Shown: piece after piece, positions 9,017-46,370 of the stretch | How the letters are laid out: every line of letters begins with the position of its first letter | Numbering within the stretch: position 1 is the first letter of the stretch | DNA from: Levilactobacillus yonginensis | GTDB lineage: Bacteria; Bacillota; Bacilli; Lactobacillales; Lactobacillaceae | Reading direction: 5' to 3' | DNA: 64,000 bases | Assembly: GCF_964065165.1 (NCBI RefSeq) | Contig: NZ_OZ061549.1 | Coordinates: forward strand, 620,001-684,000 | Translations under genes and position numbers: made by a program | The notes under the pieces: generated by a model | Database searches by the model: none | What the model saw: only the letters and a program-made list of their open reading frames with translations | What the model was told of the DNA's origin: nothing

Positions 9017-12000
9017 TAGGATTGCTTCCTTTCCTGAGTGGTTTCTTGGTCAAGGTCCACGGCGACCATCTTAGAGACGCCGGACTCTTGCATGGTCACC
9101 CCGTAAAGGATATCGGCTTGCACCATGGTTTCCTTCCGGTGGGTGATCACGATAAATTGCGTTTGATCTTGGAATTGGTGGATGTAGCGGGCAAACCGCG
9201 TCACGTTAGCGGGATCCAACGCTGCTTCCACTTCATCCAGAATACAGAACGGTACGGGTTGCACCTGTAAAATAGCAAACAACAGTGTAATGGCCGTCAA
9301 CGCCCGTTCGCCCCCAGAAAGGAGTCCCATGTTCTGGAACTTCTTGCCAGGTGGCTGGGCCATAATGTCGATTCCAGTGGTCAAGAGGTCGTCCGGGTCG
9401 GTCAAAACCAATTCGGCCGTTCCCCCGCCAAACATCTGGCGGAAGGTTGCTGTGAACTTAGCCGCAATGGCGTCAAAGCTCTGCTTAAACCGACGCTTCA
9501 CTTGACCATCCAATTCGGTCATGGTCGTGTTTAACTGTTCCTTAGCCGTCAAAAGGTCGTCCCGTTGCTTGGTCAGAAAATCATAACGTTCCTTTACTTC
9601 CTGATATTCAGCAATCGCATTGAGATTGACCGACCCGATTTCATCCAGCCCCCGCTTTAATAGCTTCAACTGGACGGCTAAATCATCGGCTGGCATATCA
9701 CTGACGTCTTGCTCAGCAGCTGCCAGACTCAACTGGTACTTTTCAGATAATTGATTTTGTTGCTGGTCGATCAGCGATGACAACCGGGTCTGTTTGATCT
9801 GTGCTTGTTGCAACTCATCGTTAGCCAGTTGCAGCAACCCCGTGGTCCGCTGATTGGCTTCTTCAGCCGCAGCCAACGCATCGTTCGCCGTCGTCAACGC
9901 ATCGTTAGTCGTTGCCAACTGCGTTTCGATTGCCTGACGTTCAGCCTGAGCCCGCTTTAATTGGGCTTCGGCATCGGCCGGCGTCTGGGCCTGTTGCTCA
10001 GCCAATTGTTGCAGGTTAGCCGTCACATCGGCCACAGTTTGTTGATCGGTTGAAATCGTATCCTGCAGTGTCTTCAGCGCCTTAGTCTGCTGCTGATGGC
10101 GCTCTTTGGCTCCGGCCAGCCACGTCTGCTTAGCGGTCAACGCCGCTTGCTTCTGGGACTGTTCAGCGGTGACCATGGTGATTTGCTGTTGCAACTGCTT
10201 AACGGCCTGTTCAGTCGTTTCAACCTGCTGCTCACCCGAGCTGATTTGCTGGGCCAATTGACTATCCTGTTGGTCTGCGTTGCTGTCCTTGGCCTGTTGA
10301 ATCTCCAACTCAGCCGCTTGGACCTGGCGGTTAGCCTGTTCCAACGTGGTTTGAGCCGTAGCTAAGTCGTCATCTAACTGACGGCACTGCGGTTGTAGCT
10401 CATTGATCGTCGTTTGTAGCACCTGGCTCCGTTGCTCGCTGGCCTGAAGTTCCGACCGTTGGGCTTTGATCTTGGTTTCCTGAGCATTCAACTGTTGCTG
10501 CATGGTCTGAATCGACGTTTGCAGCTGTTGGAGTTCCTGTTGTTGCCGCAACACACTGCTGTGGCTCTGACGGGACTGGCCCCCAGTAATGGACCCACTC
10601 GCGCTGACCACGTCTCCGGCTAGACTGACAACTCGGTAGCGGTGATGGATGCGTTGACTGATGGCAACGGCGCTGTCCAAATCGGCAGCGAGAATCGTCG
10701 TTCCCAGTAAATACCCAAGAATTGCCTGAGCGGACTGATCAATTTTGATCAAGTCACTTCCCACGCCGAGGAAACCAGACATGCTGTGTAAGAGTTGCAG
10801 GGTGCTGTGGTCGATTTGCCGTCCCCGCACTGTGCTTAGTGGCAAGAAGGTCGCCCGACCGGCTCGGTGCTCTCTCAGGTAGCCGACAGCCGCCTTAGCG
10901 GTCGTTTCATCATCAACGACCACTTGCTGCAACTGGCCACCCAAAGCGTACTCAACGGCCGTGGTGTAGCGTTCAGGGACTTGTAGGAGTTCGGACACCG
11001 CCCCCAGTAATCCCCGGAAATGCTCCCGCTGCTTCAAAATCGCCCGGACACCCTGGTAAAAACCACCGTATTCAGCCGAAGATGCCTGCTGACTGGCAGC
11101 CTTGGTCTGAGCACGCTGGTAGACTTCCAGCGCAGCTTGCCAATTGTGCTGCAATTTTTGAAAGTTTTGTTGATGATGTTGGTAGTGACCAGCTTCAGCA
11201 TCCAGAGCTTGTTCCGCCTGATTTAAGGCGTCCTTTTTCTCCTGGGCCTGTTGCGTTAAAGCCGTGACCGTAGACTGAGCAGTCTGCGCCCGTTCCTTAA
11301 GTTCAGCCAGTTGTTTAGCAACTCGTTGGCCTTGCTGCTGCAGGCGCTCCTGGTTCTGTTGCAAGTATTGTTGCTGATTACGCCAGTTGGCCACACTTTG
11401 CTTCTGGTCGAAATAGGTGGTACGCAGGTCCTCCAACTTTTGTCGTAAATCCGTCAAGGTCTTAGGATCCGTGTCATGAGTCAGTTGGCGAGCCTCTTTC
11501 TTAGCCGTTGTCATGGCCGCAGTTAACTCGCTGATTGACGCCTGTGCGGCCTTCACCGACGCATCATTTTGCTTAATTTGTTTCTGCAACTCAGTCAACT
11601 GAGTCGTTAGCCGTTGTCGTTGTTCATCCTGGTGTTTTTGCTGTTCACCAGATAAGTTAACTTGGCCTTGGCTCTGCTCCACCTGCTGTGTGGCGGTGAC
11701 TAATTTGGCCTGTAAGGCATCCTTTTGGCCTAACAACGCTGCCTGTTGTTGTTTTAACCCTTGGACGGTAGCCGTCTGCGCCTGTTCAGCGTCTTGGTGA
11801 GTCGACACCTGATTCTGTTTCTCCTGAACCTGGGCGTCAGTCGCCGTCTTCTGTTCAAGTTCTGTGTGCAATTGCCGTACCAGTTGGGTCCGATCCAGTA
11901 GCGCATATCGTTTCTGCTGGTCCAGATAATCCTGTGCTAGGTTACTCTGCTCTTCTAGGGGTTGAAGACGCCCTTCTAGCTCCGCAATGATGTCTTCCAC

Positions 12001-13625: not shown

Positions 13626-13982
13626 GTTTTACCCCTCGATCACAGTATTCAATAAGTAGTCTAACCGTTTTAGCCACCCTTGTCTAGCCAATTATAGACC
13701 TAACGACAGAGGTTGGTGCGGAACCGTGTTGCTGGGCTGATTTTAGTAGTCAAGTGGGCTGACCAAGATAATTGGTAGCGCCAATAAAATTGTCTTGTCC
13801 GGCTGAAAATTAACTGCAAGTACTAGTACCATACTCAAGTTTAGACCAAATATCACAGCAATCTAACTCCCGCTCACATGACAAACTTCCCAAGTCAGCT
13901 TACAAATATACCTAGATGACCGTTCAACTAATTGTCCTCACTACTTAGTCAGTCGGTCAATTACCCAGCTAAACTAGCCACA
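13626..13982. other. Non-coding spacer upstream of acpP
   Basis: No gene is seen. It holds the acpP leader, one inverted repeat (listed separately) and AT-leaning sequence up to structured element copy 1. No FabT-like palindrome was recognised. Confidence 0.5.
13764..13797. repeat. Inverted repeat in the acpP spacer
   Basis: CAAGATAATT pairs with AATTGTCTTG (10 bp, one G-T), with a further GG/CC inside. There is no T-run. The function is unknown; it could be an operator or RNA hairpin. Confidence 0.45.
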
Positions 13983-14157
13983 GGTTGTCAGGACAGGCAC
14001 CGGCAGTGTCGGTAATGTTGGTACGGGCGGTTTCCCCGGACCTATATTACGGGACAAGCTTTTAGATTCTCGTGATTTCCGAGAAGCTAAAAGTTGAGCT
14101 GGAGGACCGCTCTCCAGGCCGGAAGCGGCCCCACAGCCGGTGCCTGTCCTGGCAACC
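13983..14157. repeat. Structured intergenic element, copy 1
   Basis: A 175-bp GC-rich imperfect palindrome. The ends GGTTGTCAGGACAGGCACCG (extended to 22 bases at 14004) and the 22 bases at 14136-14157 pair at all 22 positions, with one G-T. Inside lie hairpin 1 (14012-14050), hairpin 2 (arms 14055-14072 and 14080-14096, framed by CAAGCTTTTAG and CTAAAAGTTG), and a third region containing GAGCTGGAGGACCGCT and GGCCGGAAGCG. The same architecture recurs at 20310-20486 and, shorter and inverted, at 44906-45038. Neither strand has a conserved reading frame. It lies between plsX and acpP. Confidence 0.85.
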
Positions 14158-14209
14158 GGAGGCGGAAGGCCCCACCTCTAGCCTTTGACCTAACAACTAG
14201 TGGTTGAAA

Positions 14210-15244
14210 CTATTTCAAAGATTCCTTCAGTGCAGCCATCTGGTCGGTATGATCAGCAAAGTAAGTTACCAACTGATCAGCACTGTGGCTAGCCAAAAGC
14301 TCACGAATCTGGCCAATTGTATTCTTCACAGTTGGCGCCTTGGTTGACCCATGCGTCTTCACAACGGGCGCCTTCAGTCCCAACAAAACAGCACCACCAT
14401 ATTGTGAGTAATCCATGGCACTCTGCACGTTCTTGAAGACGGGCTTCAAAAGACCAGCACCTAACTTGCCGCCCAGGCCACCACTCATGATTTCACCCTT
14501 GATCAGTTTCAGCATAGACAATGCGGTGCCTTCAATGGCCTTAAGCGTTGCGTTCCCAGTGAACCCATCGGTCACGACCACGTCGGCAGCGCCATTTAAA
14601 AGCTCACGAGATTCCACGTTTCCAACGAAGTTCAATTCATCCATGCCGGATAGCGCTTCGTAGATGGCACGATGCGCCATATCCCCTTTGTCAGCTTCGG
14701 TTCCGTTGTTTAAGAGCCCGACCCGTGGATTTGCCACGTGCATGACAGATTGCGCGTAATACTGACCCATAACGGCGTACTGGACCACATTAAATGGCTT
14801 CGTATCAGCGTTTGCCCCCACGTCCAACATCACAAAACTAGACTGATCTGGCTTGCGTAAAACAGGCAGGGTGGTCGTCAGACCCGGCCGTTCAATCCCC
14901 TTGATTCTGCCAACAATCAACAACCCTGCCGCCAGGACAGCTCCGGTATTGCCGGCAGAAAAGAAAGCGTCCGCCTCGCCTTCCCGAACAGCTGTCGCAG
15001 CCAATACGATACTAGATTGCTTTTTACGCCGAACTGCCCGGACAGGTTCGTCTTCCATTGCGATGACCTCTGGTGCCGGAATTAACCTGATCCGCGTCTT
15101 ATCTGTTAACAGGGGCACTACCTTTTCTTCCTGTCCATAAAGTAAAAATTCTAGGTCGGGATAGGCGTCCCGAGCAAGTTCGATTCCTTTAACAATTTCA
15201 TCTGGGGCGTAGTCACCGCCCATTGCATCAACGGCAATTTTCAT
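14210..15244 (-). CDS. plsX: Phosphate acyltransferase PlsX
   Basis: A 344-residue peripheral membrane enzyme that converts acyl-ACP and phosphate to acyl-phosphate, the acyl donor for PlsY in phospholipid synthesis. It starts MKIAVDAMGGDYAPDEIVKG, diagnostic of PlsX, and contains SAGNTGAVLA and GANADTKP family segments. recG ends only 16 bases upstream, so the two are probably co-transcribed. The carrier acpP is the next gene downstream, but after 584 bases. Confidence 0.97.
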   Translation of the reverse strand: MKIAVDAMGGDYAPDEIVKGIELARDAYPDLEFLLYGQEEKVVPLLTDKTRIRLIPAPEVIAMEDEPVRAVRRKKQSSIVLAATAVREGEADAFFSAGNTGAVLAAGLLIVGRIKGIERPGLTTTLPVLRKPDQSSFVMLDVGANADTKPFNVVQYAVMGQYYAQSVMHVANPRVGLLNNGTEADKGDMAHRAIYEALSGMDELNFVGNVESRELLNGAADVVVTDGFTGNATLKAIEGTALSMLKLIKGEIMSGGLGGKLGAGLLKPVFKNVQSAMDYSQYGGAVLLGLKAPVVKTHGSTKAPTVKNTIGQIRELLASHSADQLVTYFADHTDQMAALKESLK

Positions 15245-19938: not shown

Positions 19939-20309
19939 GTGTCTCCTCCACTTGAAAGCGGTTATCACTGCAACCTCGAGTGAAAAGGTTTCATGTATCC
20001 GCCGGTCAATTTTCACTATGTCTGACTAAACCCCAAAACCAAATCCTTGCTGTATCAGGAATATGGCAAATAATACTTAGCAATTGAAGAAACTGGCTTT
20101 CAAAATCAGATTGCTGCTAAAAATATCGAATCACAAAAAAATATTTTTTCATTCTGCTTCAATTCAATCTAGCAATTCTGCAAAAAGTTAACTTGCACCC
20201 TGGATTAATAACCACCAATTTCGCTATATCAGTTTGGTCAGGTTGAAAACCACTCTTACTATGTCACAACCAACCACCTAATCTTTCAAAATACATCAAT
20301 GTAGCCGGA
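19939..20309. other. AT-rich spacer with no recognised gene
   Basis: About 370 bases after the rpmB terminator. No reading frame with a ribosome binding site and no clear promoter was found. It ends at structured element copy 2. Confidence 0.5.
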
Positions 20310-20486
20310 GGTTGTCAGGACTGGGGCCGGCGGTGTCGATGGTGTTAGTTCGGGTGGGCTCTGTCCGAACTTACAGCATGGGGCAAGCTTGGAGACTTGC
20401 GTGGTCTGCGGAAGGCTTCAAGTTGAGCTGGAGGACCGCTTCTCAGGCCGGAAGCGCCCCCACAGCCGGCCCCAGTCCTGGCAGCC
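20310..20486. repeat. Structured intergenic element, copy 2
   Basis: A 177-bp relative of the element at 13983, in the same orientation. The 22-base ends (20310-20331 and 20465-20486) pair at every position. Compared with copy 1, three pairs have changed on both sides at once: A-T to T-A, C-G to G-C and A-T to G-C. Hairpin 1 uses ATGGTGTTAGTTCGG (20339-20353) against 20365-20379. Hairpin 2 uses CAAGCTTGGAGACTTGCG (20384-20401) against CGGAAGGCTTCAAGTTG (20409-20425). GAGCTGGAGGACCGCT and GGCCGGAAGCG are shared with copy 1. Small frames through it are not conserved in copy 1. It lies between rpmB and the thiN terminator. Confidence 0.85.
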
Positions 20487-20511
20487 GCAGGCGGCGTGGT
20501 ACAGTCACAAT

Positions 20512-44857: not shown

Positions 44858-44905
44858 GACCGCCTCCTTGAAATTGTTCCCTTAAACGTGAGAAATCGCC
44901 TTACC

Positions 44906-45038
44906 GGTCGGCCATTCTGGGCTGGAACGGCGCCGACACAACTTTAAGCCTTGAAACCCACAAGTCTTAAAGCTTGGTCTTGTTCTAGGCCGTAAACGGC
45001 CAAGAACAACGAGGCGCCTGAGCCCAGAATGACCGACC
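44906..45038 (-). repeat. Structured intergenic element, copy 3 (short form)
   Basis: A 133-bp element in inverse orientation to the other two. On the minus strand the ends GGTCGGTCATTCTGGGCT and AGCCCAGAATGGCCGACC pair over all 18 positions. GGCGCC/GGCGCC continues the stem. Hairpin 1 is TTGTTCT/AGAACAA with inner GGCCGT/ACGGCC (44980-45009). Hairpin 2 is CAAGCTTTAAGACTTG against CAAGGCTTAAAGTTG (44939-44976), keeping the CAAGCTT and AAGTTG frame of copies 1 and 2. The third region of the longer copies is missing. It lies 48 bases before the M24 peptidase. Confidence 0.8.
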
Positions 45039-45186
45039 TCTCGGCTTACACAGGTTCTAACCACAATTATCCGGTATCGTTATTCTTCATCAGTCAGTAA
45101 CGCGCGACTTTTAGCCGTCCAAGTGACCGATAAGTTCACAATTACACCTAATCATGATTTCCACGCTGACACCCCATTTTAAGGCG
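45039..45186. other. Spacer between element copy 3 and the rpmA terminator
   Basis: AT-leaning, with no gene. A GATAAT-like -10 near 45065 (minus strand) lacks a good -35, so I do not call a promoter. Confidence 0.4.
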
Positions 45187-46261: not shown

Positions 46262-46370
46262 CTTATATATTTAGACTTAGACTCGCCGAAAACAAGTGCT
46301 CCGCAAGCGGAAATCTTACTAACTTGTCCCGAGCGGTTGCAGCTGTGGAAGTCCACAAATACAACATGAA
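46262..46370 (-). ncRNA. L21 leader (r-protein autoregulatory leader)
   Basis: The 120-base leader between promoter and rplU is strongly structured. GACTT (46349-46353) pairs with AAGTC (46274-46278). ACAAGT pairs with ACTTGT (46322-46327 and 46292-46297), and CCG/CGG closes a small hairpin. Firmicutes rplU genes commonly carry an L21 leader thought to mediate feedback control. The assignment rests on position and visible pairing. Confidence 0.65.

What the first reader, a model, noticed from the sequence alone, without database searches (positions are those of the whole stretch)
13983..14157. Long covarying palindromic element, copy 1, in the plsX-acpP gap
A 22-bp closing stem, two internal hairpins and a third conserved region fill 175 bp of non-coding DNA. 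Versus copy 2 the stem carries three double compensatory swaps (A-T to T-A, C-G to G-C, A-T to G-C) and no disrupted pair. Hairpin 2 shows further paired change (TTTTAG/CTAAAA versus TTGGAG/CTTCAA). Structure is kept while sequence drifts, the mark of a functional fold. I do not recognise it as a known Rfam or REP/ERIC class. It also splits a gene pair that is normally adjacent.
Basis: partly seen in the sequence, partly recalled or inferred. Interest (0 to 1): 0.85.

Follow-up and report, generated by a model that had tools for sequence, protein, structure and literature searches.

The report
Mobile structured RNA repeats in lactobacilli
The palindrome between two fatty-acid genes is one of well over a hundred copies, in this Levilactobacillus chromosome, of a complex RNA-like fold whose relatives ride on small transposons and whose folding appears to be still protected by selection after it has landed.

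Summary
Copy 1 is window 13972-14168 (+). It is one of 140 hits at E<1e-5 on this chromosome (170 elements with a second model). The 25-copy alignment supports 64 pairs, 51 with compensatory changes; Rfam has no match. The fold is a long closing stem around a junction with three hairpins. A shorter variant (copy 3, 44893-45050, minus strand) lacks one hairpin.

Copies often sit in outward-facing pairs: of 59 close neighbour pairs, 47 are divergent, none convergent. In relatives, such cores lie inside small transposons with 14-bp inverted ends, some with exact 8-bp target duplications; an insertion sequence with the same ends encodes an IS4-family transposase. Copies 1 and 2 have no recognisable transposon ends.

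The main new result concerns copies at the same site in sister species. Stems diverge half as fast as loops, double changes restore pairs, and new G-U pairs exceed new A-C mismatches (100 to 46). This points to selection on the folded sense RNA of resident copies, not only to ancestry.

No promoter or terminator of their own was found. The function (RNA barrier or processing site) is inferred. The literature tools failed, so novelty rests on Rfam only.

The parts
13972..14168 (+). copy 1, full type-A structured element
   Evidence: CM R1 183.1 bits, E 1.3e-47, copy 1 being one of R1's 25 training sequences; R2, built from type-B copies, also finds it, 43.5 bits
13977..14008 (+). 5' arm of the closing stem (with a 3x3 internal loop near its foot)
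   Evidence: inverted repeat I1, 32 nt, 88% complementary; helices 1 and 2
14132..14163 (+). 3' arm of the closing stem
14012..14050 (+). hairpin P2
   Evidence: helix 3, 13 pairs, all 13 with double changes
14055..14096 (+). hairpin P3 (TTTTAG/CTAAAA in copy 1, TTGGAG/CTTCAA in copy 2)
   Evidence: helix 5, 15 pairs, 13 with double changes
14098..14126 (+). hairpin P4, absent from the shorter type-B consensus
   Evidence: helices 6 and 7; absent in the A3 consensus
20299..20497 (+). copy 2, type A, between rpmB (+) and the thiamine pyrophosphokinase gene (-)
   Evidence: CM R1 190.8 bits (also a training sequence); orthologous in G010 and G289, which also keep an oppositely facing partner that G000 lacks
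44893..45050 (-). copy 3, shorter type-B element, 35 bp upstream of a prolidase-like M24 peptidase gene on the same strand
   Evidence: R1 61.5 bits, R2 168.5 bits (it is one of R2's 18 training sequences); gene by Pfam
13640..13699 (-). conserved promoter-like sequence upstream of acpP, kept in all 30 fetched species whether or not an element is inserted
   Evidence: read from the 30 gap sequences; promoter role inferred
14210..15244 (-). plsX, flanking gene
   Evidence: PF02504
13380..13625 (-). acpP, flanking gene (stretch translated)
   Evidence: PF00550

Best explanation
Copy 1 belongs to a family of dispersed, structured-RNA repeats of about 160-200 nt in Lactobacillaceae. SHOWN: the cores fold on one strand into a long closing stem with two or three inner hairpins; more than half of those found (94 of 170) have an outward-facing partner nearby; relatives of them are arms of MITE-like non-autonomous transposons whose ends match an IS with an IS4-family transposase; presence differs between species at the same intergenic sites; and copies that stay at one site keep their pairs, with the sense strand preferred. 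INFERRED: the cores spread by IS4-type transposition in trans, the transposon ends then decay (copy 1 has none that I could find), and the core stays because RNA read outward through it must fold. The likeliest use is a co-transcriptionally folded barrier or processing site (for example a double-strand-RNA cleavage site) that separates transcription arriving across an intergenic region from the neighbouring gene, often the 3' end of a gene on the other strand. Copy 1 would do this between plsX and the promoter region of acpP.
For: Structure: 64 pairs, 51 with double changes; all five measures beat 500 of 500 shuffles. Copy number: 149 hits at E<=1, scoring stopped at 150 candidates; 170 elements after adding 30 more. 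Outward pairs: 47 -+, 6 ++, 6 --, 0 +-. Mobile units: TIR CTAAAGGTTGAAAG with exact 8-bp duplications in 4 of 12 units fetched for having paired ends (L262, L263, L264, L268, the last without a core), nine identical bases in L267, partial or unclear in the rest. IS with these ends: the copy in G058, another genus of the family, encodes a 447-aa protein scoring 471 bits against NF049925, IS4 family; in G009 of the same genus such an end lies about 70 bp from a match to that model. Presence/absence: 8 of 30 plsX-acpP gaps carry elements. In-place constraint: 76 of 148 copies matched in G289, stem divergence 5.5%, loop 9.5%, flank 9.7%. Polarised with three genomes, 43 copies kept of 52: WC to GU 100, WC to AC 46, p 9e-6; double changes WC to WC 16, broken 4, 3.3 doubles expected. 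The GU excess holds on both genome strands and on both sides of 1.4 Mb. Raw loop mutation counts give no bias towards it.
Against: No own promoter: upstream scores equal the reverse strand and shuffles. No terminator behind the sense strand in 129 of 132 copies. Dependence of the GU excess on the upstream gene's direction is not significant (p 0.38), and there is no excess in copies between divergent genes, 11 to 12. Only 9 of 132 copies have a downstream TIR with 12 or more of 14 letters and 8 an upstream one (controls 0-1 and 0-2), and pairs and singles show no target duplication above chance at the core ends, so transposition of type-A cores themselves is not shown in this genome. The compensating double changes lie in 9 of 43 copies and could in part come from quasi-palindrome template switching rather than selection. 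No RNA data were available.
Confidence: 0.5

Rival explanations
1. Dead transposon remnants. The cores are arms of old MITEs with no present role; compensatory changes come from quasi-palindrome correction by template switching in DNA and from selection on active ancestors.
For: Related cores lie in MITEs with target duplications; copies differ in presence between species; template switching would make double changes and slow stems without selection.
Against: Template switching should treat both DNA strands alike, yet new G-U pairs exceed new A-C mismatches, and on both genome strands. Junction letters, some of them unpaired, are among the most constant columns between orthologues.
Confidence: 0.27
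2. Cis-regulatory RNA in leaders or 3' ends of mRNAs (leader, attenuator or stability element), active only where co-transcribed.
For: Copy 3 lies 35 bp upstream of a start codon on the same strand; the GU excess is numerically strongest where both neighbours run with the element (21 to 6).
Against: Only 26 of 140 copies have both neighbours in the sense direction; the five neighbouring genes checked by Pfam are unrelated; context effect not significant.
Confidence: 0.1
3. REP/BIME-like single-stranded DNA elements moved by a Y1 (RAYT or IS200-type) transposase.
For: Left ends often read GTAG; opposed pairs recall BIMEs (resemblance recalled, not tested).
Against: PF01797 occurs in 23 of 35 genus genomes without tracking the element: G002, G012, G023 and G194 have none but many elements, G022 and G282 have it but no R1 hit at the thresholds used.
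Confidence: 0.04
4. Independent genes for small RNAs acting in trans.
For: Complex conserved fold; sense-strand constraint.
Against: No promoter signal in 132 upstream regions and no terminator in 129 of 132 (simple consensus scans); copy number and turnover are those of a repeat.
Confidence: 0.05
5. RNA part of a mobile system that acts on itself (scaffold for a guide-RNA nuclease or template for a reverse transcriptase), spread without its protein.
For: Outward-reading structured RNA, with near flanks that share no motif outside the D-type sub-family, the geometry I recall for TnpB omega-RNA; strand preference.
Against: No protein partner was sought beyond PF01797 and the IS4 transposase, so this is untested; the closing stem through both ends is unlike the omega-RNAs I recall; mobile relatives have DDE-type ends.
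Confidence: 0.04

Closest known systems
MITEs of IS4-family insertion sequences
   Same: Short, non-coding, 14-bp inverted ends shared with an IS that encodes an IS4-family transposase, 8-bp duplications, intergenic
   Different: Carry one or two large covarying RNA-like cores facing outward; MITEs with the same ends but no core also exist (L268, L270); most type-A cores of this genome, copies 1 and 2 included, have no such ends
REP/BIME elements (recalled)
   Same: Many intergenic palindromic copies, opposed pairs
   Different: Much longer, multi-branched, and no Y1 transposase association
ERIC, BOX, RUP and Correia-type repeats (recalled)
   Same: Intergenic, folding, transposon-like repeats of roughly this size
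   Different: Not compared by sequence here; strength of covariation and constraint on resident copies was measured for this family only, and I make no claim about theirs
Rfam structured RNAs
   Same: Covarying multi-helix fold with conserved junction letters
   Different: No family matches copy 1, the window region around it, or five loci with type B, C and D elements

Membership tests
MITE (non-autonomous DDE transposon) | Terminal inverted repeats | tested here: inconclusive
   Met for C/D-type units and for two A-like cases in relatives (L269, L229); not found around copy 1 or copy 2, and only 9 of 132 copies have a downstream end with 12 or more of 14 letters
MITE (non-autonomous DDE transposon) | Target-site duplication | tested here: inconclusive
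   Exact 8 bp in four of 12 units; none above chance at core ends of 29 pairs and 74 singles
MITE (non-autonomous DDE transposon) | Autonomous partner with the same ends | tested here: met
   IS with CTAAAGGTTGAAAG end and IS4-family transposase; model over cut-off in 6 of 35 genus genomes, only a fragment in G000
REP/BIME with RAYT | Y1 transposase co-occurring with the repeat | tested here: not met
Known Rfam RNA family | Score over the curated threshold | tested here: not met
   (only the L21 leader is found in the window)
Structured functional RNA | Covariation beyond column composition and relatedness | tested here: met
   shuffles and slides; orthologues; R-scape itself was not available
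Structured functional RNA | Transcript | not testable with these tools
Trans-acting sRNA gene | Own promoter and terminator | tested here: not met
   simple consensus scan only

The most novel reading that the evidence does not exclude
Lactobacillaceae carry a dispersed functional RNA: a multi-branched fold that transposons sow into well over a hundred intergenic sites of one genome and that the host then keeps, copy by copy, as an RNA-level boundary between transcription units.
Probability: 0.35. Interest if true: 0.85.

Novelty: new variant of a known kind. Interest (0 to 1): 0.68.

Why it matters
Repeats of transposon origin are mostly seen as debris once inserted. Here the pairing of resident copies appears to be kept, with a strand preference that DNA-level repair does not predict, in a food-associated genus with many sequenced species. 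That makes an old question (when does a mobile repeat become a working RNA?) directly testable with orthologous copies and RNA-seq. An RNA family of this copy number that is missing from Rfam would also matter for annotation of the whole family.

Tried and rejected
Considered and rejected or weakened: known Rfam family; phage or plasmid origin (no match to copy 1 in phages, or to copy 2 in plasmids); Y1/RAYT mobilisation; independent promoter or terminator; a common motif in the near flanks of the cores (k-mer counts: no shared motif except within the D-type sub-family; one search stopped on a script error after printing the upstream table); target duplications at core ends (none above chance); orientation relative to neighbours as a strong rule (98 of 140 copies face an antiparallel downstream gene, but outward pairing explains much of this; among isolated copies between tandem genes 22 of 31 are antisense); stronger GU excess where the upstream gene runs with the element (not significant).

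Results against my reading: TIRs in few copies; no own promoter; context effect not significant; double changes concentrated in 9 of 43 copies. Nine of 52 three-genome copies were dropped before that count, either because no neighbour context was assigned or because the core diverged more than its flank (possible wrong paralogue or conversion). Before dropping, the counts were 122 WC to GU, 66 WC to AC, 39 by transversion, 36 WC-to-WC doubles and 5 broken. Orthologue coverage is partial: 40 of the 41 windows computed for G289 (67 of 68 listed copies) and 20 of 42 for G010 (56 of 82) were fetched, and the list itself stopped at 150 rows for the two genomes together. Nine of the 149 own-genome hits (the weakest) were left out of the context counts, and 8 of 140 short ones out of the flank counts.

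Literature: eight look-ups failed with a time-out. No paper was read, so I make no claim that the family is absent from print.

Full report
WHAT WAS CHECKED. The finding describes a long palindrome at 13983-14157 between plsX and acpP. The inverted repeat is present with arms 13977-14008 and 14132-14163. The sequence folds much better than shuffles on either strand: z -8.77 on plus and -8.78 on minus. The full element, as delimited by a covariance model, is 13972-14168 on the plus strand. Copies 1 and 2 are 75.5% identical over 196 aligned columns; 15 of 64 consensus pairs differ, 10 by double changes that keep the pair, 2 by single changes that keep it, 3 not kept.

THE FAMILY. A BLAST search of the own genome with copy 1 gave 33 rows, including copy 1 itself and two matches between its own arms. 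An alignment of 25 copies (A1) gives a consensus of 64 pairs, 51 with at least one double change that keeps the pair. Five measures exceed all 500 shuffles, and structures slid by 1 to 3 columns have 33-43% paired cells against 96.4%. The structure was derived from these same sequences, so the slides flatter it; the orthologue test below uses changes that played no part in deriving it. Model R1 finds 149 hits at E<=1 in the chromosome, 140 of them at E<1e-5, with scoring stopped at 150 candidates, so this is a lower bound. A second sub-type, B (about 160 nt, no P4 hairpin), gave alignment A3 and model R2: 54 pairs, 40 with double changes. R2, built from 18 B-type sequences including window copy 3, also recovers many A-type copies, copy 1 with E 3e-11 and copy 2 with E 2.6e-12, both on the sense strand only. 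I take the two sub-types to be homologous. The combined list has 170 elements. Rfam has nothing at gathering threshold in the window except the L21 leader, nothing near copy 1 at E<=5 except a sub-threshold CRISPR repeat outside the element, and nothing at E<=0.05 in five loci with B, C and D types.

DISTRIBUTION. Hits to the pattern in named genomes are all Levilactobacillus (19 stretches; very near records of the own genome may be left out there). R1 hits occur in 61 of 251 family genomes, own included, and 10 of 40 genera (strict filters and ten candidates scored per genome, so counts are minimal). In a first sample of 40, own genome included, 23 have hits: 23 of 24 genus genomes and 0 of 16 from other families. 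In an order-wide sample of 295 genomes, 12 of the family (own included) and 3 of another family have hits; the latter are single weak matches at E 9e-7 to 7e-4 that I do not interpret.

ARCHITECTURE. Among neighbours closer than 800 bp, 47 pairs face outward, 12 run the same way and none face each other; 94 of 170 elements have an outward partner (with R1 alone 32, 9 and 1 within 1,500 bp). A set of D-type copies shares flanks and forms a composite unit: inverted end, about 95 nt, a C-type core facing left, about 78 nt, a D-type core facing right, about 95 nt, inverted end; several members are incomplete. Of 12 units fetched because their ends were paired, four have exact 8-bp target duplications (L262, L263, L264, L268) and L267 has nine identical bases; the others are partial or unclear. 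Two of the 12, L268 and L270, have the same ends but no core. Two A-like cases with ends were seen in relatives (L229, L269). In G289 a D-type unit sits in the plsX-acpP gap where G000 and G010 have an uninterrupted site. An IS with the same ends, often at contig edges as multi-copy IS are, encodes a 447-470 aa protein; the copy from G058, another genus of the family, scores 471 bits against NF049925, IS4 family. That model is over its cut-off in 6 of 35 genus genomes, including G010; G000 has a fragment on contig 5. In G009, of the same genus, such an end (10151-10164) lies beside a match to the model (10232-11536, one internal stop). Most A-type copies in G000, copies 1 and 2 included, show neither these ends nor duplications. 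So IS4-type mobilisation is shown by ends and duplications for the C/D-bearing units and inferred for type A.

SITES. In 30 fetched species (of 35 searched) the plsX-acpP gap is 78-232 bp in 22 and 554-943 bp in 8; the 8 carry one to three R1 hits of differing sub-type and arrangement, the 22 none. A promoter-like sequence next to acpP is kept in all 30. At copy 2, G010 and G289 keep an oppositely facing partner; the alignment reads as a deletion in G000. Of 140 own copies, 53 lie between convergent genes, 71 between tandem genes and 16 between divergent genes; in 98 the downstream neighbour is antiparallel (crude ORF calls; 7 copies overlap a called ORF).

CONSTRAINT IN PLACE. Mobile ancestors could explain covariation between paralogues, so I compared resident copies with their orthologues, requiring flank alignment. 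Against G289 (76 of 148 copies) stems differ at 5.5% of sites, loops 9.5%, flanks 9.7%; against G010 (71 of 148) 4.8%, 8.9% and 9.1%. Flanks include some coding sequence. Where G000 has a Watson-Crick pair, the orthologue has G-U in 97 and A-C in 43 cases (G289, p 6e-6), and 70 against 25 (G010, p 4e-6), in the same direction on both genome strands and on both sides of an arbitrary split at 1.4 Mb. Polarised by majority among three genomes, after dropping 9 of 52 copies, there are 100 changes to G-U, 46 to A-C, 33 by transversion, 16 double changes to another Watson-Crick pair and 4 broken doubles, with 3.3 doubles expected if the sides changed independently. Raw loop mutation counts, not corrected for base composition, show no bias towards the G-U-making types: C>T 83 and A>G 37 against G>A 89 and T>C 58. 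G-U on one strand is A-C on the other, so template-switch repair in DNA should not favour either; selection on the folded sense strand does. The excess does not depend significantly on whether the upstream gene runs with the element (p 0.38), and it is absent in the smallest class, copies between divergent genes (11 to 12). Columns around the junction, including some unpaired letters, are among those that change least between orthologues.

HOW IT MAY WORK. No promoter signal precedes the cores and only 3 of 132 have a terminator behind the sense strand, whereas 32 of 132 have a terminator there on the other strand. Any sense RNA therefore probably comes from read-through or pervasive transcription. 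The simplest function that fits is a folded RNA barrier or processing site between transcription units. This step is inference. The main alternative is that the cores are remnants and part of the pattern comes from DNA repair; the strand-specific excess is the argument against it, and it rests on about 150 polarised changes.

VERDICT. Observation confirmed, interpretation partly supported. It is a new variant of a known kind (transposon-borne palindromic repeats), unusual in the size of its covarying fold and in the evidence that resident copies stay constrained.

Noticed in passing
window 46269-46348 (-): Ribosomal protein L21 leader, the only Rfam match in the window.
   Followed up: no
G000 chromosome, 0-0.2 Mb and 0.8-1.2 Mb: The 140 R1 hits are very unevenly spread: none in 0-0.2 Mb and two in 0.8-1.2 Mb, against 18-23 per 200 kb in five other bins. 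Unexplained.
   Followed up: no
L268 (G007) 1024-1247 and L270 (G014) 1015-1211: MITEs of about 200 bp with the same inverted ends but without any structured core.
   Followed up: partly
Foot of the closing stem and P4 of type A; in copy 1 window 13980-13982 with 14158-14160: A recurring symmetric three-by-three internal loop between G-C pairs, most often GGA opposite GGA or GCA (ACA opposite GGA in copy 1), appears at the foot of the closing stem and again in P4; read from alignment A1. It could be a protein or sheared G-A motif.
   Followed up: no
G330, G350, G391 (another family of the order): Single weak R1 hits, E 9e-7 to 7e-4; chance or distant relatives.
   Followed up: no
window 44893-45050 (-): A B-type element lies in the leader region of a prolidase-like gene, 35 bp before its start codon on the same strand.
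   Followed up: partly
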